Source of the DNA: Actinomycetes bacterium
GTDB taxonomy: Bacteria > Actinomycetota > Acidimicrobiia > Acidimicrobiales > Ilumatobacteraceae
Length of the DNA stretch: 64,000 bases
Assembly (NCBI GenBank): GCA_021414085.1
Contig: JAIOPC010000007.1
Span: forward strand, 186,001 to 250,000
Direction of reading: 5' to 3'
In this document: positions 39,071-46,459 of the stretch, piece after piece
Layout of the letters: the number at the start of each line of letters is the position of its first letter
How positions within the stretch are numbered: the stretch's first letter is position 1
Program-made: the position numbers and the translations under genes
The notes under the pieces: model-generated
Seen by the model: the letters and a program-made list of their open reading frames with translations, nothing else
Databases searched by the model: none
Told to the model about the DNA's origin: nothing

Positions 39071-40312
39071 TCAGGCGTTGGGTGCGAGCTTGACGATTTT
39101 GGCGGCGGCTTTGTACGCCAGCTCCGCCGGACCAAGCTCGTCGGGGCGCAACAGGTTGGCCATGATGCGCAGCACCCATTCCATCAACGTGCGGCTGTGC
39201 ATGCCGGCACGCGTGAGTTCACGCATGAGCACAGGCTTACCGATCACACGCGCGAACAGTCGCGCGACCTTGAAGTAGTCGCCGTACTCGTCATCGAGCA
39301 TCTTCGTGTAGCCCTGCAGCAGCGTCGGGTCGCCGGTCACGAGCGCTTCATGCAAGATCTGCGCGGCCATGCGCGCGGTCTCGTAGGCGTAGTCGATGCC
39401 CTCACCGTTGAACGGATTGACGCTGCCGGAAGCGTCGCCAACTACTAAGTAGCTCGGCCCCGCTTTCGGCCCCACCGATCCGCCCATCGGGATGCGACCG
39501 CTCGTCGGTTTGCGTTCGGGGTTGCCAGGGTCGATCTCCCAGCGCTCGGCGACCTGATGTGCGTAGGCGTCGAGCAGGTGGGTGGTGTTGACGCTCTTGA
39601 AATCGCGGAACGTGCTGAGCAAACCAACACCGATGTTGACGGTGCCATCGCCCACCGGAAAGATCCAGCCGTAACCCGGCATCGGATTGCCGTTGCGATC
39701 CTTTACGTCGAGCGCGGATTCGATCCATGGCTCGGCATGACGCGGCGTCGTCCAGTACGTGCGGATGGCGGTGCCATAGGGCCACTCGCGCGTGCGGAAC
39801 GTGCCCAGTGCGCGACCGAAGCGACTGTTCGCCCCGTCGGCGACGACCACGTACTTGGCGTAGATGTCCTTCGTTTCGCCGCCGTACGTCTGCACTGTTG
39901 CGCCGCGCACGAAGCCGCGCTCAACGATCGGTTGCACCGCTTCGTGACCGAGCAGCAACGTCGCGCCTTGCTGTTGCGCATTCTCGGCCACCATCTGATC
40001 GAGTTCGCGTCGTCGCACGACATATCCGTACCGCGGGTACACCGGGTGGCTCGGCCACTCAAGTTCAAGCTCGCGGCCCATGCCAGTGGCGCGCAGCCCG
40101 TTGTAACGGTGGTACTTCGTGAGCTGTTCGCTCAGACCCATCTCGTTGAGCTGGTGCACCGCTCGCGGTGTGAGCCCATCGCCACAGGTCTTCTCGCGCG
40201 GAAACGTCTTGCGTTCGACGATCGTGACGGCGTGTCCGTGCCGGGCCAGCCAGTACGCGGCCGCGGCACCTGCCGGACCGCCGCCGATAACAAGTACGTC
40301 GGTGTCAGCCAT
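39071..40312 (-). CDS. Geranylgeranyl reductase family flavoprotein
   Basis: A 413-residue FAD enzyme from ATG at 40312. GGGPAG near residue 9 and a following VER give the Rossmann fold; KTCGDGLTPRAVHQLNEMG is the Cys-Gly motif typical of the family; VVADGANSRFGRALG and VGDASGSVNPFNGEGIDYAYETARMAA complete the FAD contacts. Such enzymes saturate prenyl chains, and in menaquinone organisms some reduce one isoprene unit of menaquinone. The 8-base overlap with the cytochrome c gene upstream and the nearby polyprenyl synthase gene support a link to quinone or respiration. Confidence 0.87.
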   Translation of the reverse strand: MADTDVLVIGGGPAGAAAAYWLARHGHAVTIVERKTFPREKTCGDGLTPRAVHQLNEMGLSEQLTKYHRYNGLRATGMGRELELEWPSHPVYPRYGYVVRRRELDQMVAENAQQQGATLLLGHEAVQPIVERGFVRGATVQTYGGETKDIYAKYVVVADGANSRFGRALGTFRTREWPYGTAIRTYWTTPRHAEPWIESALDVKDRNGNPMPGYGWIFPVGDGTVNIGVGLLSTFRDFKSVNTTHLLDAYAHQVAERWEIDPGNPERKPTSGRIPMGGSVGPKAGPSYLVVGDASGSVNPFNGEGIDYAYETARMAAQILHEALVTGDPTLLQGYTKMLDDEYGDYFKVARLFARVIGKPVLMRELTRAGMHSRTLMEWVLRIMANLLRPDELGPAELAYKAAAKIVKLAPNA

Positions 40313-41117
40313 TGGCAGAGGCGCCGGCCAGCGGAGCCTCGCCGATCTGCAACACACCTTCGAACTGCTCGTGGACATTCGCAAATGTGGCCGTGCCCGC
40401 TTCGAGCGCCAGGAAGATTGCGCTGGTCGGACTGCACCAAGTGTCGTACTCGGTTCCCTCGTGCGCGACGCCCGCGAGGTCGAAGCGTTCGTGACACACC
40501 ACCGCAAGAATCTCAACATCGCTGAGACCGAGCGCGGCCGCGGCCGCCGGCATGACGCCGGTTGCACCGGCGATGTGCGCGCCGCCTGCACGGTTCGGGT
40601 CGCCGGCAATGGTGACGCCCGCGGCGACGTACGCCTCGGATCCAAACTTCACCCAGCGCAGTTGATCTTCGATGTGCGGGAAGGTGGCGATTACCGATCC
40701 GGCTTGAAACGAGTAGCCGACACCACCCTCGCCGCTGCCGCCGTGGCAGCTCGCGCACTGGTTGTACACGGTGGCACCCTCACCAAGAGGACCTGTGGCG
40801 ACAACGGTTTCCGGTTGCAGCGCGCGCACGTACATGAATGCCCACACCGGCAAGATGCTGAGTGTGAGCATCGCCCACACGGGAATCTTCTTGCGCGCCT
40901 TGTAGGCCGCGACAACTGGCGAGTCTGGCTGGGCGGGCGGGGGGCCTACCGGTGCGGCACTTTCGGTGCGCACGGCCTTGCCGGCTGGTTCGACCGCAGC
41001 ACCCGCCGCGGCGGGTGTGGTTGGTGTGGTGGTGGCGACGGCAGTTCCGGGTGTCTCGCCCGCGGCGCCACGCCGTTCCTTGCTGCGCTTCAGCAGGTGC
41101 TCGGGGATCTCAGTCAC
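40305..41117 (-). CDS. Membrane-anchored mono-haem cytochrome c
   Basis: A 270-residue protein starting GTG at 41117. It opens with [16 protein letters not shown], then a Pro/Ala/Thr-rich disordered stretch to about residue 70, a basic KARKK and one transmembrane helix (79-98), so the N-terminus faces the cytoplasm and the haem domain the outside. One haem motif CASCH (121-125) is present. Two further Cys (VVCHERFDL, TWCSPTS) may form a disulphide. The same opening peptide is found on subunit IV at 43023, suggesting that this cytochrome belongs to the b6f-type complex whose genes diverge from it. It overlaps the reductase gene by eight bases. Confidence 0.85.
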   Translation of the reverse strand: MTEIPEHLLKRSKERRGAAGETPGTAVATTTPTTPAAAGAAVEPAGKAVRTESAAPVGPPPAQPDSPVVAAYKARKKIPVWAMLTLSILPVWAFMYVRALQPETVVATGPLGEGATVYNQCASCHGGSGEGGVGYSFQAGSVIATFPHIEDQLRWVKFGSEAYVAAGVTIAGDPNRAGGAHIAGATGVMPAAAAALGLSDVEILAVVCHERFDLAGVAHEGTEYDTWCSPTSAIFLALEAGTATFANVHEQFEGVLQIGEAPLAGASANG

Positions 41118-41307: not shown

Positions 41308-41796
41308 TTGTTGATTGCATTCGATACCAACGTGTTGCACTGGCCTGGTGTCAATGTCGCATTTTTGTTCTCATTCTTTTTGTCCTCCGGCCTCGCGCTG
41401 CTCGCCATTCCGTACGCGAAGCGGCGCCCGAAGGGCACACCGACATCGTGGGGCGAAGCGATGCTCGCCGCGGTGTTTGTGTTCGGAATCATGTTCATGG
41501 CGTTCGGCGTTGTGCCGCACCAGTTCATCGATCATGCCGACAAGGAATTGGGCTGGAACAAGAGCCTCATCATCTACGGCCCATTCGACCTGCTGAAGCC
41601 GAAGGCGCTTGGCGGTCCGTTTCCGTTCACGATGTCGTACGAAGCGATTCGCGACATCATCGTTGTCACGATTCACGTGTGGTACTTCGGCCTCATGATC
41701 TCACTGTGGGGTCGCTGGCAGCGGCGCGGCGACGCGAAGCCGGGAACTGAAGTGGCAACCAGCAGCTTTGGTCGTCCGTTGGTGAAGAAGAGCTAA
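41308..41796 (+). CDS. Membrane protein of unknown function, first gene of the b6f-type cluster
   Basis: A 162-residue protein starting TTG at 41308, eight bases after AAGGAAGGGA. Three hydrophobic helices are predicted: VAFLFSFFLSSGLALLAIPYA, the AAVFVFGIMFMAFGVV segment, and IIVVTIHVWYFGLMISLW. The loop HQFIDHADKELGWNKS carries two His near the membrane surface, and the tail is basic. I do not recognise the family. Its place two bases before the ferredoxin gene suggests a small subunit or anchor of the quinol oxidoreductase, perhaps the docking site of that ferredoxin; this is inference. Confidence 0.75.
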   Translation: MLIAFDTNVLHWPGVNVAFLFSFFLSSGLALLAIPYAKRRPKGTPTSWGEAMLAAVFVFGIMFMAFGVVPHQFIDHADKELGWNKSLIIYGPFDLLKPKALGGPFPFTMSYEAIRDIIVVTIHVWYFGLMISLWGRWQRRGDAKPGTEVATSSFGRPLVKKS

Positions 41797-41798
41797 CG

Positions 41799-42212
41799 AT
41801 GGCCAAGACCGACGCCAATCCTCCGATGATGCCGTACACCGACGAGTACTCACTCGTCGAGGTCGATGCCGAGTATCTGTCCAAGGCTGTCAAGCCGAAG
41901 CAGTTCATCCACATCGATCAGACCGAATGCATCTTGTGTGAGGGCTGTGTCGATATCTGCCCGTGGAAGTGCATCCACATGGTGTCGCCCGATGCGATCG
42001 CCGAGGCCACCGGCACCGAGCGACCAGGGCTCGACCCCAGCGATAGCGTCGTGTTCATCATCGACGACGACATCTGCACGCGCTGTCAGTTGTGCGTCGA
42101 TCGTTGTCCAACCGGTGTGATCATCATGGGCAAGGTTGGGGCGCCAACAATCTCCGGCGACTCGCACGTGCGTACGAACAGCCATGGCTATGCCTACGGC
42201 CTGAGGTTCTGA
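41799..42212 (+). CDS. 2[4Fe-4S] ferredoxin-type protein in the b6f-type cluster
   Basis: A 137-residue soluble protein. Two CxxCxxCxxxCP cluster motifs are complete: C44, C47, C50, C54 ([13 protein letters not shown]) and C93, C96, C99, C103 ([14 protein letters not shown]), so it should bind two [4Fe-4S] clusters. The motifs look like those of complex I subunit NuoI, which is also encoded in this block, so it may be a NuoI paralogue. There is no signal peptide, so it acts on the cytoplasmic side. Its position between a membrane protein gene and the cytochrome b gene suggests it delivers electrons to, or takes them from, the quinone site on that side. Confidence 0.9.
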
Positions 42213-42237
42213 GGAAACACCCTTAAGGGAAACGACT

Positions 42238-43023
42238 ATGGCCAAAATTCTTGACGAGACACCACGCCCTACCCTGAAGGACCGCATGACCAAGATGGTC
42301 GACGGTCTGCAGGGCAGCCAGGCGTGGGCCAGCATCTTCCGCCCGGGCAGCATCTTCCGTAAGGGCTACACCGATAGCCCGCGTAACCGCAGCTACGTCG
42401 TCATGAACTCGGTGCTGTATCACCTGCACCCGGTGAAGGTGAAGCGTCACGCAGTGAAGGTGAGTTACACGCTGTGCCTCGGCGGGCTCAGCTTCTTCCT
42501 CTTCATCTTGCTCACGGTCACCGGCATCTTCTTGATGTTCTTCTACCGACCCACCGATGTCAGCGCGTGGAACGACATCTCCAACCTGCAGACCTCGGTC
42601 GCGTTTGGGTTACTTGTCCGCAACATGCATCGATGGGGCGCGCACCTCATGGTGCTCACCGTCTTCTTGCATATGGCGCGCGTGTTCTACCACGGTGCCT
42701 ACAAGCCGCCGCGCGAGTTCAACTGGGTGATCGGTGTCGTGTTGTTGATGCTCACTCTGTTGCTCTCCTTCACCGGCTATCTGTTGCCATGGGACCAACT
42801 TGCGCTGTGGGCCGTCACGGTCGGTACGAACATGATGGGATACAGCCCTGTCATCGGCGATCAGGTGCGCTTCGTGTTGTTGGGTGGCAAGGAGATCAGC
42901 GGCGACACCCTGCTCCGATGGTATGTGCTGCACGTTTTGATGTTGCCCTTTGTCATTGTGATCTTTATGGCCGTGCACTTCTGGCGAGTCCGTAAAGACG
43001 GCGGAATCTCAGGACCTCTCTGA
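42238..43023 (+). CDS. Cytochrome b6-type subunit of a quinol:cytochrome c oxidoreductase
   Basis: A 261-residue four-helix cytochrome b. Haem ligands are H131/H145 ([17 protein letters not shown]) and H232/H247 (LHVLML, VHFWRV); the 15-residue step in the second pair is the b6f spacing, one more than in bc1. C80 in TLCLGG aligns with the Cys that holds haem c(i) (c(n)) in cytochrome b6. The PWDQ motif (184-187) and the ending [10 protein letters not shown] are also b6-like. AGGGAAA precedes the ATG. It should oxidise menaquinol at the outer site and carry electrons through two haems b. The gene ends at the start of subunit IV (one-base overlap). Confidence 0.93.
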
Positions 43024-43694
43024 TGACCGAAATCCCCGAACACCTTCTGAAGCGTGCAAAGGCAGCTCGCGCGCAGACCTCGGATGCTCCTGCGGACGCC
43101 GACGCGCCCGCTGGTGGTGGCGTAGCTGTCAAGGAGAAAGTTGCGAGCGCAGTTTCGGCCGCACCAGCTCGCAGTGGGCCGCTTGGTACAGGCCCGGGGG
43201 GCAACACCCAGCGCCTGCTGACGGTTGTCAAGAGCGGCAGCATCCAAGACGTCAAGGCGTCGCCGGTCGACAAGGTGCACACCTGGCCGCACCTGCTCGC
43301 CGCCGAGTTCGTGGCCGCCCTCGCCTGTATGTCGTTTACGTTCTTCTTCTCGGTGTTCGTCAACGCCCCGCTGCTGCAGCAGGCCAACATCAACAAGACG
43401 CCGAACCCGTCGAAGGCACCGTGGTACTTCTTGGGCCTGCAGGAATTGCTCACGATGTTCCACCCAATGATCGCGGGCGTGACGATTCCTGGCGTTGGCC
43501 TGGTCGCGCTGATCTTCGCCCCGTACATCGACAAGAACCCTTCCAACAAGCCCGAAGATCGCAAGTTCGCGATATCGCTGATGACCGTGCACCTGATGTT
43601 CTGGGCCGTGTTGGTCATCATCGGTTCGTTCTTCCGTGGCCCCGGCTTCAACTTCACGCTCCCCTGGCGTGACGGACTGTTCTTCGAATTGTGA
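43023..43694 (+). CDS. Subunit IV-like cytochrome b C-terminal protein
   Basis: A 223-residue protein. The C-terminal 150 residues carry three helices and NPSKAPWYFLGLQELL, the quinol-site segment of subunit IV-type proteins (here without the Glu of the PEWY motif), plus APYIDKNPSNKPEDRK. The first 70 residues are an added Ala/Asp-rich cytoplasmic stretch beginning [16 protein letters not shown], nearly the same as the start of the divergent cytochrome c. With the preceding b6-type gene it makes a complete split cytochrome b. Typical actinobacterial qcrB is a single fused gene with a different architecture. Confidence 0.9.
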   Translation: MTEIPEHLLKRAKAARAQTSDAPADADAPAGGGVAVKEKVASAVSAAPARSGPLGTGPGGNTQRLLTVVKSGSIQDVKASPVDKVHTWPHLLAAEFVAALACMSFTFFFSVFVNAPLLQQANINKTPNPSKAPWYFLGLQELLTMFHPMIAGVTIPGVGLVALIFAPYIDKNPSNKPEDRKFAISLMTVHLMFWAVLVIIGSFFRGPGFNFTLPWRDGLFFEL

Positions 43695-43701
43695 GGCTGT
43701 C

Positions 43702-44562
43702 ATGAGTTCCGCTGTCACCATTGCAATCGCCGTTGGCGCCGTCACCGTTCTCGCGGCTGTCGTCATGCTCACCGCCGCGCGGCGCAGCGACGTACGTGGC
43801 GCTGGCGCGCTGAGTCGCGAGACGGTTCGTCGCGACAAAGACGCCGACATCGATCTTCCGGTCGCACCCACGGGCCGCGCAGTCGAGCGTGCTGCCGTCG
43901 AGGCTCGCCACTCCGCACTGGTCGCCAGTGCTGGCGGCCCACCGGTGATCTGGACACCACCCGACGCGGAGGAAGTCGGTGTCAACCGTCGCCAATTCCT
44001 CAATCGCGCCAGCGTTACGTTGATGAGCACGAGCTTGGCAACGTTCGGATTGGCATGCATCGCCTTCCTCTGGCCGACCTCGGCACCGATCTTCGGTGGC
44101 AAGGTCAACCTCGGCAAGCTCGACGACATCTTGTCGAGCATCCGAAGCAACAGCGGCTTCTTCTATGCGTCGAACGCTCGCTCGTACGTCACCGTCTACC
44201 CATCAGAAGCGTTGCCCAAGGCGCGTGGTGTGAAGGAGTACACGCAACTCATCAGCGGCATGGAGAGCGGCGTCGTCGCGCTGTACCAGAAGTGCCCGCA
44301 CCTGGGTTGCCGTGTTCCGCAGTGCCCCAGCAGCCAGTGGTTCGAATGCCCCTGCCACGGTTCGCAATACAACCGCGTTGGCGAGAAGAAGGGTGGGCCG
44401 GCCCCGCGGGGAATGTCCCACTTCGCGGTTGCTGTCACACCTGGTGGCGACGTCATCGTCGACACGTCGACGGTGATCGCCGGCGCTCCGATTGGCACGA
44501 ATACCACCGGGCAAGAGGCTGAAGGTCCGCACTGCCTCAGTGGCGGCGGTGGTCACGGATGA
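43702..44562 (+). CDS. Rieske iron-sulfur subunit
   Basis: A 286-residue Rieske protein. Box I CPHLGC gives C198 and H200, box II CPCHGS gives C216 and H219 as [2Fe-2S] ligands, with C203-C218 as the stabilising disulphide. A hydrophobic helix at residues 4-24 and a second one at 105-124 preceded by the twin-arginine stretch NRRQFLNRA suggest Tat-dependent insertion of the folded domain with two membrane passes. It passes one electron of menaquinol to cytochrome c. Its stop overlaps the start of the cytochrome c gene. Confidence 0.94.
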   Translation: MSSAVTIAIAVGAVTVLAAVVMLTAARRSDVRGAGALSRETVRRDKDADIDLPVAPTGRAVERAAVEARHSALVASAGGPPVIWTPPDAEEVGVNRRQFLNRASVTLMSTSLATFGLACIAFLWPTSAPIFGGKVNLGKLDDILSSIRSNSGFFYASNARSYVTVYPSEALPKARGVKEYTQLISGMESGVVALYQKCPHLGCRVPQCPSSQWFECPCHGSQYNRVGEKKGGPAPRGMSHFAVAVTPGGDVIVDTSTVIAGAPIGTNTTGQEAEGPHCLSGGGGHG

Positions 44563-45644
44563 TGGCACCTACTCTCGGGCTTACCACCGTTGTCGTCGGA
44601 TGGGTGCTCTTCGCGTTCATCACCATCGGCTGGATCACCTACTTCTTTCTGAGCAAGGCTGCTGCGCGTAGTGAGTTGGGCTCCGAAGCCGAAGTCGCGC
44701 CGAACCGCAAGCCGTACTACGACGACGACAAGCTGGAAGGTCCCCGCCTCGAGCGCATGCAGTTCTTGGGTGTGTTGCTGCTGATCACCATGGTGATCGG
44801 GTTGCCGCTCTATTGGGTGCTCGAGCCTGGTCGCCAAGCGGGTGCCGTCGCCGCCAAGGAAGCACAGTTCCGCGGTTGGGGCGAAGGCCTGTTCCGCACG
44901 ACTGCCGACGGCGGGTTCAACTGTGCCGGTTGCCACGGTGGCATGAAGGCAGCCGGTGGTGCCGCGCCATATCCGTTGACCGACAACACCGGCAAGGTGA
45001 CGGTCGTGTCATGGAACGCTCCTGCGCTCAACACCATCTTCTATCGCTACAGCCGCGACGAGATCAGGTTCATCCTCAACTACGGCCGCCCGTTTTCGCC
45101 GATGCCGGCGTGGGGTGCGCCTGGTGGTGGCCCGATGACCGAGCAGGAAATCGAGACGCTGATCGTCTATCTCGAGAGCATTCAGCTGCGGCCGGAAGGT
45201 TGCACCACCAACGACGAGTTCAGCGACAAGGGCGACCCGATTGTGTGCGACGGCGGTGTACTGCCGGAAGCGACACGGGTCGAAATCGCAACCGCGGTAG
45301 AGCGCTACCAGACGGACAACCCTGGTGCCAGCGAAGGCGAAGCGCTGTTCAACCTCAGCATTTCCAGTGGCGCCTACAGCTGTGCTCGCTGCCACACGCC
45401 CGGCTGGAGCTACGGAAACCCCGGCGTTGATGCGCAGGGTGCGTTCGGGTGGAACCTCACCGGCGGCGCTACCAACTCGCACTTCGCCAACGAGGAAGAC
45501 ATGATCGCATTTGTGAAGGCTGGGTCTAAGAACGGCGCCCGCTATGGCCTGCAGAGCCAAGGCAGTGGCCGTATGCCCGGCTTTGGTCACGTGCTGACCG
45601 ACGAACAAATCAAGGCCGTTGTCGAATATGTGCGGGGGCTGTGA
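44559..45644 (+). CDS. Di-haem cytochrome c of the quinol oxidoreductase
   Basis: A 361-residue protein with two N-terminal membrane helices (about 6-30 and 68-88) and two cytochrome c domains. Haem motifs are CAGCH (122-126) and CARCH (275-279); a likely axial Met lies in RPFSPMPAWG for the first domain and in GRMPGFG for the second. A Cys pair (CTTNDE, VCDGG) between the domains may be a disulphide. Di-haem c subunits replace cytochrome f/c1 in actinobacterial and heliobacterial complexes. ATG at 44559 overlaps the Rieske stop. Confidence 0.92.
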   Translation: MMAPTLGLTTVVVGWVLFAFITIGWITYFFLSKAAARSELGSEAEVAPNRKPYYDDDKLEGPRLERMQFLGVLLLITMVIGLPLYWVLEPGRQAGAVAAKEAQFRGWGEGLFRTTADGGFNCAGCHGGMKAAGGAAPYPLTDNTGKVTVVSWNAPALNTIFYRYSRDEIRFILNYGRPFSPMPAWGAPGGGPMTEQEIETLIVYLESIQLRPEGCTTNDEFSDKGDPIVCDGGVLPEATRVEIATAVERYQTDNPGASEGEALFNLSISSGAYSCARCHTPGWSYGNPGVDAQGAFGWNLTGGATNSHFANEEDMIAFVKAGSKNGARYGLQSQGSGRMPGFGHVLTDEQIKAVVEYVRGL

Positions 45645-46459
45645 TGAACGCGTTGTTGGCAATCAACTGGGAACCTGAACTTCGCGGCATCATCATCGTC
45701 ATCATCGCGGTCGGCACGTTGTGCGGCAGCGTGTATCTCATCCTCGGTACCAACCTTGGTGCCCGCTTGGGTTTACTTGTCGCGTTGGCCGGGCTCGCTG
45801 GCTGGATGTTCATCCTCGGCGCAACGTGGTGGACGTATAGCAAAGGTCTGCTCGGCGACGAGCCTTCGTGGAAACCGGTGGCTGGCAAGACGATCATTCG
45901 CGAGTACGAGGCGCTCTCGGAACTCGGATTGCTCGACGCACCGTTCACGGCAACCGACGATGTCACCGCCGACGCCGACAGCGTTGAGGCGCTGCTCGTC
46001 GACCAGGACTGGGCCAAGCTCGATTCTGCGTTGCCGTCTTTCCAGCAGGCGGCGTCTGCTGGCACTGAGGTTGTGATTGCAGCCGAGACGTTCGCAGCTG
46101 GCGAGTTCCAGGTTGTCAACGTGTTCGACATCGGTGGCGAGCGCAGCCCAATTCTCTTCGACGGCAAGATCGACTTCATTGCCTTCTTCCACAAGCCGCA
46201 CTACGTGCTCGTCGAAATCGCACCGTTGGTTCCGCAGCGCACCGAGCCGGGTCGTGCCCCGGCGCGCTCGGTGATCGACACGTCGCGTCCGCACGAGTAC
46301 GTGTACATGATTCGCGACCTTGGCTCGAAGCGAGTGCCCGCCGCGATCATCACGATCTCATCACTGGTTATCTTGCTGCTGACTTGTTGGCTGCTACACA
46401 CTCGCGACCAACGCGTACGCGAGAACCGGTCGGCCAAGGCGCTGCCGGCGGGGGTATGA
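45644..46459 (+). CDS. Membrane protein of unknown function, last gene of the b6f-type cluster
   Basis: A 271-residue protein. Two N-terminal helices (IIIVIIAVGTLCGSVYLIL and LGLLVALAGLAGWMFILG), an outer domain of about 150 residues with many acidic positions, and one C-terminal helix (AIITISSLVILLLTCWLL) with a basic tail. FFHKPHYVLVEIAPLVPQRTEPG in the outer domain is the most distinctive part. No haem, iron-sulfur or metal motif is seen. I do not recognise the family. It overlaps the cytochrome c stop and ends four bases before nuoA, so it could be an accessory subunit or an assembly factor. Confidence 0.75.
   Translation: MNALLAINWEPELRGIIIVIIAVGTLCGSVYLILGTNLGARLGLLVALAGLAGWMFILGATWWTYSKGLLGDEPSWKPVAGKTIIREYEALSELGLLDAPFTATDDVTADADSVEALLVDQDWAKLDSALPSFQQAASAGTEVVIAAETFAAGEFQVVNVFDIGGERSPILFDGKIDFIAFFHKPHYVLVEIAPLVPQRTEPGRAPARSVIDTSRPHEYVYMIRDLGSKRVPAAIITISSLVILLLTCWLLHTRDQRVRENRSAKALPAGV

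What the first reader, a model, noticed from the sequence alone, without database searches (positions are those of the whole stretch)
41308..46459. b6f-type quinol oxidoreductase with an embedded 2[4Fe-4S] ferredoxin gene
The cytochrome b gene is split and b6-like: histidine steps of 14 and 15 residues, C80 in TLCLGG at the position that holds haem c(i), and an ending GISGPL as in plant b6. Typical actinobacterial bcc complexes use a fused QcrB and carry no ferredoxin. Here a two-cluster ferredoxin gene sits directly upstream of cytochrome b, between two unrecognised membrane proteins, in one coupled unit. The haem c(i) site faces the cytoplasm, where a ferredoxin could dock. I infer a complex that can take electrons from ferredoxin into menaquinone (or the reverse) as well as oxidise menaquinol. 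A role like cyclic electron flow in b6f has long been proposed but not with a dedicated ferredoxin subunit in this setting.
Basis: partly seen in the sequence, partly recalled or inferred. Interest (0 to 1): 0.8.

Follow-up and report, generated by a model that had tools for sequence, protein, structure and literature searches.

The report
Respiratory b6-type complex with own ferredoxin
In this bacterium and most sampled members of its class, the genes for a respiratory complex related to the plant photosynthetic b6f complex include a conserved ferredoxin gene, which suggests that the complex exchanges electrons with the cell interior as well as doing its usual job.

Summary
The operon is mem1, 2[4Fe-4S] ferredoxin (fd), split b6-like cytochrome b, subunit IV, Rieske, dihaem cytochrome c, mem2, then nuoA. 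C80 aligns with the haem c(i) cysteine of cyanobacterial b6 and is Cys in 126 of 126 aligned relatives. Of 148 sampled genomes of the class, 124 have this b6 and 120 of those have fd directly upstream. The pair also stands in 20 of 20 loci fetched from elsewhere in the phylum, although 240 of 346 phylum genomes had no fd match. fd follows this complex, not 2-oxoacid:ferredoxin oxidoreductases or the neighbouring geranylgeranyl reductase. It is dispensable: one genome in each of three families lost it cleanly. A paralogous operon has the fd domain fused to an NfnL/GltD-like FAD/NAD(P) module; there the haem c(i) Cys, a subunit IV Glu and a Rieske Tyr are all replaced. That module resembles the NAD(P) reductase of anammox Rieske/cytochrome b complexes (PMC12954380). 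Best reading: fd is a dedicated cytoplasmic-side electron partner, more likely feeding menaquinone than drawing from it. Association and direction are unproven.

The parts
41308..41796 (+). mem1: three-helix membrane protein of unknown family; kept in all three operons that lost fd
   Evidence: no Pfam or NCBIfam match; AlphaFold2 model with three helices, pLDDT 80; no Foldseek match with E 0.001 or better; weakly similar proteins (13-25% identity) upstream of fd in the six loci outside the class whose upstream ORFs were read
41799..42212 (+). 2[4Fe-4S] ferredoxin (fd), 137 aa, with a CPWxC motif
   Evidence: Pfam Fer4 families; cluster cysteines 128 of 128, C58 127 of 128; Foldseek closest to FwdF, on a model of modest confidence
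42238..43023 (+). b6-like cytochrome b with haem c(i) cysteine C80 and a basic N-terminal extension of about 45 residues
   Evidence: phmmer to cytochrome b6 structures, E 5e-47; C80 126 of 126; H62 and H64 126 of 126; residues 31-76 net charge +7 to +9 in 130 loci
43023..43694 (+). subunit IV-like C-terminal half of cytochrome b; Qo motif KAPWYF; conserved Glu in the WPHLL stretch
   Evidence: PF00032; Glu in 120 loci, His in 5 of 5 fused-type loci, 2 of 127 not scored
43702..44562 (+). Rieske [2Fe-2S] subunit, CPHLGC ... CPCHGSQY
   Evidence: PF00355; Tyr in 47 of 47 fd-type rows, Phe in 5 of 5 fused-type rows
44559..45644 (+). membrane-anchored dihaem cytochrome c (anchor inferred from sequence by eye)
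   Evidence: PF13442 and PF00034; two CxxCH
45641..46459 (+). mem2: membrane protein of unknown family, last gene before nuoA
   Evidence: no Pfam or NCBIfam match; aligned with 12 relatives, 26-70% identity
40305..41117 (-). divergent cytochrome c with one CxxCH, neighbour
   Evidence: PF00034; one CxxCH; matches nearby in many class loci
39071..40318 (-). geranylgeranyl reductase / MenJ-like flavoprotein (GGR), neighbour; tested as another partner for fd
   Evidence: NCBIfam GG-red-SF over its cut-off, MenJ under its cut-off; presence does not follow fd

Best explanation
The operon encodes a menaquinol:cytochrome c oxidoreductase (complex III): a split, haem c(i)-bearing b6-type Rieske/cytochrome b complex with a dihaem cytochrome c in place of cytochrome f. 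The ferredoxin is a dedicated cytoplasmic-side electron-transfer partner that meets the complex near haem c(i), plausibly on the basic N-terminal extension of b6, and exchanges electrons with the haem c(i)/b(H) pair. The more likely direction is reduced ferredoxin to haem c(i) to menaquinone, so that ferredoxin-linked oxidations enter the Q cycle. Shown here: the genes, the conserved residues, the conserved order, and that fd goes with this complex rather than with two other candidate partners. Inferred: the quinone, haem c(i) itself, docking, the electron path and its direction.
For: 120 of 124 class genomes with this b6 have fd directly upstream, median gap 124 bp; 22 of 148 have neither. 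The pair stands in 20 of 20 loci fetched outside the class, chosen by hand from 82 genomes with a match, while neighbours such as nuo and GGR move. fd is kept in genomes of about 1 Mb (family f15). C80 126 of 126. A paralogous operon has a homologous fd domain fused to an NfnL/GltD-like FAD/NAD(P) module ahead of a related b, subunit IV, Rieske and cytochrome c. There the Cys, the Glu and the Rieske Tyr change together to Arg or Tyr, His and Phe, as if the cytoplasmic-side route differs. fd core charge averages -9 and b6 extension +8. The b6f complex is already discussed as a possible ferredoxin-plastoquinone reductase through haem c(i) (PMC13287000, passages).
Against: G110, G036 and G018, in three families, have lost fd cleanly and kept mem1 and b6 with C80; where read (G110, G036) the subunit IV Glu and Rieske Tyr are kept too, and no other fd of this type was found in the three. 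G107 has a second fd copy away from b6, and contig-end pieces in four other genomes suggest the same. The b6 extension is not clearly relaxed after fd loss: 0, 3 and 1 changes at 23 conserved positions in G110, G036 and G018, and its charge is unchanged, so the charge match may be ordinary positive-inside bias. 14 of 122 fd-bearing genomes, some of them incomplete, show no PF01855 oxidoreductase to reduce fd. No complex was modelled and I found no biochemistry.
Confidence: 0.45

Rival explanations
1. Output direction: the complex oxidises menaquinol and, by bifurcation at Qo, sends one electron through b(L), b(H) and haem c(i) to fd, making low-potential ferredoxin at the expense of the high-potential chain, as proposed for NAD(P)H production in anammox complexes.
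For: Anammox b6-like complexes with an NAD(P) reductase are proposed to work this way (PMC12954380). The fd-type Rieske has Ser and Tyr in the second box in 47 of 47 rows; that these raise the potential is recalled. 14 of 122 fd-bearing genomes show no PF01855 enzyme that would reduce fd.
Against: Uphill by several hundred mV from menaquinol; a Glu ligand of haem c(i) is linked to about -50 mV, near menaquinone, though the register of the Glu here is uncertain. The paralog with the fused NAD(P) module has Phe (recalled as lower potential) and lacks the haem c(i) Cys, so the covariation does not favour output in the fd type. The potential of fd is unknown.
Confidence: 0.15
2. fd is an ordinary soluble carrier for other enzymes (2-oxoacid:ferredoxin oxidoreductases, geranylgeranyl or menaquinone reductase, others); its place in the operon is only co-regulation.
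For: One certain and four suspected copies outside the operon, natural losses, and a GGR gene next door in many class members. That an archaeal GGR uses a ferredoxin is recalled, not looked up.
Against: PF01855 enzymes are as common with as without fd: 108 of 122 against 22 of 26 (hand count). 19 of 22 genomes with neither fd nor this b6 have a GGR homologue at E 1e-40, and 19 of the 20 listed f15 genomes without one have fd (hand count; 16 more genomes without a match were not listed). fd stands before b6 in 120 of 124.
Confidence: 0.25
3. fd is an assembly factor or redox sensor of the complex, for example helping haem c(i) attachment, and is not part of electron flow.
For: Position ahead of b6 in the operon and strong conservation.
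Against: C80 is kept in all three operons without fd, so attachment presumably proceeds without it. Eight invariant cluster ligands and the fusion of a homologous domain to a flavoprotein point to electron transfer.
Confidence: 0.1

Closest known systems
Cytochrome b6f complex (cyanobacteria, plastids)
   Same: Split b6 plus subunit IV, His steps 14 and 15, haem c(i) Cys, GISGPL end; CHGSQY Rieske box in the window (its likeness to the chloroplast box is recalled)
   Different: Dihaem cytochrome c in the operon instead of cytochrome f, KAPWYF instead of PEWY, N-terminal extension of b6, a Glu in subunit IV at or next to the place of Phe40, a ferredoxin gene in the operon
Anammox Rieske/cytochrome b complexes Kuste4569-4574 and Kustd1480-1485 (PMC12954380)
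   Same: b6-like cytochrome b with subunit IV. Their NAD(P) reductases were modelled with 9bp5 (NfnABC) and 5t5i (formylmethanofuran dehydrogenase); the fused paralog here hits 9bov/9bp5 best and the free fd hits FwdF proteins best
   Different: In the window a stand-alone fd with no flavin module, and a dihaem instead of a hexa- or octahaem cytochrome c
Actinobacterial bcc complex (QcrCAB)
   Same: Rieske/cytochrome b complex with a dihaem cytochrome c (recalled for QcrC)
   Different: QcrB is one chain; the b6 here scores 118 bits against a cut-off of 500 for actinobacterial QcrB; a ferredoxin gene is not part of that complex (recalled)
ExtP/ExtQ of selenite/tellurite operons (NCBIfam NF040969, NF040970)
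   Same: b6 passes the ExtP cut-off, 309 against 290 bits
   Different: Subunit IV is under the ExtQ cut-off, 50 against 150 bits; the operon has Rieske, cytochrome c and fd
Dicluster ferredoxin domains of FwdF and NuoI
   Same: Two CxxCxxCxxxCP clusters; best sequence and fold matches
   Different: Below the cut-off of each of the 25 NCBIfam families shown; conserved CPWxC; a gene of its own

Membership tests
b6f-type (split, haem c(i)) Rieske/cytochrome b complex | Split b6 and subunit IV | tested here: met
b6f-type (split, haem c(i)) Rieske/cytochrome b complex | b-haem histidines at steps 14 and 15 | tested here: met
   H131/H145 and H232/H247
b6f-type (split, haem c(i)) Rieske/cytochrome b complex | Cys at the haem c(i) position | tested here: met
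   C80 on C35; 126 of 126
b6f-type (split, haem c(i)) Rieske/cytochrome b complex | Covalent high-spin haem actually present | not testable with these tools
   needs haem stain, optical or EPR spectra
Photosynthetic cytochrome b6f complex proper | Cytochrome f in the operon and PEWY motif | tested here: not met
   dihaem cytochrome c; KAPWYF
Anammox-type NAD(P) reductase Rieske/cytochrome b complex | FAD/NAD(P) oxidoreductase encoded with the complex | tested here: not met
   the window operon has only fd; present in the paralogous operons L067-L070 and L074 (domains scanned for L067 and L074)
Anammox-type NAD(P) reductase Rieske/cytochrome b complex | Hexa- or octahaem cytochrome c | tested here: not met
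   two CxxCH
Anammox-type NAD(P) reductase Rieske/cytochrome b complex | b-type haem at the dimer interface held by a His of cytochrome b | tested here: inconclusive
   H62 and H64 are invariant, 126 of 126, but Kuenenia sequences were not at hand to align
Actinobacterial bcc complex | Cytochrome b in one chain (QcrB) | tested here: not met
   separate b6 and subunit IV genes; 118 bits against cut-off 500
ExtP/ExtQ | ExtP and ExtQ both over their cut-offs | tested here: not met
   ExtP yes, ExtQ no
2[4Fe-4S] ferredoxin | Two CxxCxxCxxxCP motifs | tested here: met
Subunit of the complex | Physical association of fd with the complex | not testable with these tools
   no complex modelling was on offer, and the papers listed in the searches made show no biochemistry of it

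The most novel reading that the evidence does not exclude
Complex III of much of a bacterial class, and of other parts of its phylum, has a second, cytoplasmic-side redox port: a dedicated ferredoxin that either feeds electrons into the Q cycle at haem c(i) or is reduced there by menaquinol bifurcation during respiration. A paralogous line replaced haem c(i) by a fused NAD(P)H module.
Probability: 0.35. Interest if true: 0.85.

Novelty: new variant of a known kind. Interest (0 to 1): 0.62.

Why it matters
Whether ferredoxin enters b6-type complexes at haem c(i) is a long-standing question of cyclic electron flow. Here is a family, not tied to photosynthesis as far as the operon shows, in which a ferredoxin gene is bound to the complex by gene order across much of a class and in further lineages of the phylum. 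Three natural fd losses and a flavoprotein-fused paralog without the haem c(i) cysteine give ready comparisons. If the port is real, complex III of these bacteria handles ferredoxin electrons, which changes energy budgets for those that run the TCA cycle through 2-oxoglutarate:ferredoxin oxidoreductase; a genome study of the order UBA5794 reports that enzyme in most genomes and no 2-oxoglutarate dehydrogenase (PMC12008989, passages).

Tried and rejected
mem1 fold search gave no match with E 0.001 or better. GGR and 2-oxoacid:ferredoxin oxidoreductases as the true partners of fd: rejected as exclusive partners by presence and absence. Relaxed constraint on the b6 N-terminal extension after fd loss: 3 changes in G036, 1 in G018, 0 in G110 at 23 conserved positions; Y44H occurs in G036 and G018 but also in fd-bearing L086 and L098, so inconclusive. 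Charge complementarity is present but also in fd-less operons. An apparent fd-b6 fusion in G127 (L073): fd lies in two frames, probably a sequencing frameshift. Contig ends inside fd in G096, G111, G139 and G131: first taken for an insertion, now read as duplicate fd copies breaking the assembly, because G107 has two full copies and the pieces sit in different contexts; not proven. The Glu of subunit IV lies one residue from Phe40 of PetD in the alignment, so its identity with the Glu ligand known elsewhere is uncertain. Kao and Hunte 2014 and Baymann 2012 were not held, so what they say of actinobacterial split cytochrome b was not seen.
Full report
What is there. The window's genome is 3.2 Mb. 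Its class is Acidimicrobiia: G074, listed as of the same class, holds the same DNA as a named contig titled Acidimicrobiia bacterium (L051 and L156). Pfam and NCBIfam give ferredoxin, cytochrome b/b6, subunit IV, Rieske and cytochrome c; nothing for the two membrane proteins.

Cytochrome b. Against solved structures the best five matches are cytochromes b6, E 5e-47 to 2e-45, with query 75-261 on residues 30-215 of the best. C80 falls on C35, the haem c(i) cysteine, and the histidines on the b6 pairs with steps of 14 and 15. In an alignment of 126 relatives (117 distinct) C80 is Cys in 126; H62, H64 and H131 are His in 126, H145 and H232 in 125, H247 in 124. The chain is about 45 residues longer at the N-terminus than cyanobacterial b6, and 23 positions among residues 1-72 are the same in 93% or more of the fd-bearing rows.

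Subunit IV and Rieske. Of 127 loci with a subunit IV match, 125 read KAPWY in place of PEWY, L108 reads KVPWY and L135 does not cover it. The eighth residue of the stretch that begins WPHLL is Glu in 120 and His in the 5 fused-type loci; L071 (a third type) and L108 were not scored. The second Rieske box has Ser and Tyr in 47 of 47 fd-type rows (CHGSxY, CHSSKY in L049) and Ser and Phe in 5 of 5 fused-type rows. The cytochrome c of the window has two CxxCH.

Conservation of the pair in the class. Of 148 genomes, b6 of this kind (E below 1e-120) is in 124 and fd is directly upstream in 120; gap median 124 bp, range 8-297 (places copied). Of the four exceptions, in G084 b6 begins at a contig end; G110, G036 and G018 are clean losses, with no fd between mem1 and b6, 21 bases apart in G110 (mem1 of G018 was seen by eye in the translation). 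Twenty-two genomes have neither; G076 and G131 have fd only at contig ends and no b6 of this kind. Of 20 class loci read, 20 have fd then b6, and 19 continue with subunit IV, Rieske and cytochrome c (L043 ends at b6); a mem1 match was found in 17 and a mem2 match, often short, in 15.

Wider. In a phylum sample of 346 genomes, 106 have an fd match at 1e-12 and 240 do not. By my count 82 of the 106 lie outside the class; a few of these are only fused-type or likely contamination. I fetched 20 loci by hand from different families: 20 of 20 have fd then b6 and subunit IV, 19 with a Rieske match (L083 ends early). In the six whose upstream ORFs I read there is a mem1-like gene, 13-25% identical to the window's. 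Of 80 named contigs, found through fd, 76 have b6 within the DNA held.

Tests of other partners. PF01855 (2-oxoacid:ferredoxin oxidoreductase) at 1e-10 is in 130 of 148 genomes: 108 of 122 with fd and 22 of 26 without, by hand count; G084, among the 26, may merely be broken there. A GGR homologue at 1e-40 is in 112 of 148: 19 of the 22 genomes with neither fd nor b6 have one, and of the 20 listed f15 genomes without one 19 have fd. So fd follows the complex and neither of these.

Against an obligatory subunit. Besides the losses, G107 has a second full fd at C1:604493, and fd pieces at contig ends in G096, G111, G139 and G131 lie in other contexts, for example near lgt-like and pirin-like ORFs recognised by eye. 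The fd model is of modest confidence (best pLDDT 70, the other four models 42-44); its Foldseek matches at E 0.001 or better are FwdF chains and one complex I TYKY subunit, with NuoI-like chains and PsaC weaker.

The fused paralog. In G019, G007, G032, G062 and G030 a paralogous operon has an open frame of 606-753 codons ending in a dicluster domain that matches fd, followed by cytochrome b (47-56% identity to the window's), subunit IV, Rieske and cytochrome c. Pfam, run on two of the five, gives Fer4_20, Pyr_redox_2 and the dicluster domain; the best solved relatives of the G019 protein are 9bov/9bp5, NfnA and a formate dehydrogenase chain, then NfnI alpha. In these five, C80 is Arg or Tyr. 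The anammox paper placed the clusters of its NAD(P) reductases with 9bp5 and 5t5i, the same relatives. I read passages and sections 9 and 13 of that paper, not the whole.

Mechanism. Shown: conserved cofactor ligands, conserved order, linkage of fd to the complex, and a fusion of an fd-like domain to an NAD(P)-type flavoprotein in a sister complex. Inferred: that fd meets haem c(i)/b(H). Input to menaquinone is downhill for a typical ferredoxin; output would need an unusually low-potential b chain, as argued for anammox. Menaquinone as the quinone of this class is recalled. I put partner status at about 0.45 with input favoured, output at 0.15, unrelated carrier at 0.25, assembly or sensing at 0.1.

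Known or not. In the ten searches of the held open library the listed titles and abstract starts, often only the top part of the hits, showed no ferredoxin in an actinobacterial complex III operon. One order-level genome study (PMC12008989) annotates complex III as a menaquinol-cytochrome c reductase and, in the passages seen, names no ferredoxin subunit. The library lacks most subscription papers, so this is weak evidence of novelty.

Noticed in passing
L067, L068, L069, L070, L074 (genomes G019, G007, G032, G062, G030): Paralogous Rieske/cytochrome b operon with an NfnL/GltD-like FAD/NAD(P) protein fused to an fd-like domain; haem c(i) Cys, subunit IV Glu and Rieske Tyr all replaced. Looks like an actinobacterial counterpart of the anammox NAD(P) reductase complexes.
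   Followed up: partly
L055, L056, L072 (genomes G110, G036, G018): Three clean natural losses of fd with mem1 and b6 kept, in three different families.
   Followed up: yes
L099 (G107:C1:604493), and contig ends in L058, L060, L062, L065: One certain and several suspected fd copies away from the b6 operon.
   Followed up: partly
window 42238-43023: b6 passes the NCBIfam cut-off of ExtP (selenite/tellurite operon), so automatic annotation may misname complex III here.
   Followed up: partly
L071:6267-7874 and L074:4890-6465: A third, more distant b6/subunit IV pair (43-45% identity over b6), beside a Rieske-like gene in L074; possibly the true ExtP type.
   Followed up: no
L128, L154, L155: MAG records titled Bifidobacterium breve carry the fd of this family; the titles look wrong.
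   Followed up: no
G187:C115: A genome listed as of the same phylum only has an fd 68% identical to the window's plus a second, 41% identical one; probably contamination.
   Followed up: no
class families f2, f4, f5: All sampled members lack both fd and this b6 and match the b6 query only weakly (E about 1e-21 to 1e-29), perhaps a one-chain actinobacterial QcrB.
   Followed up: no
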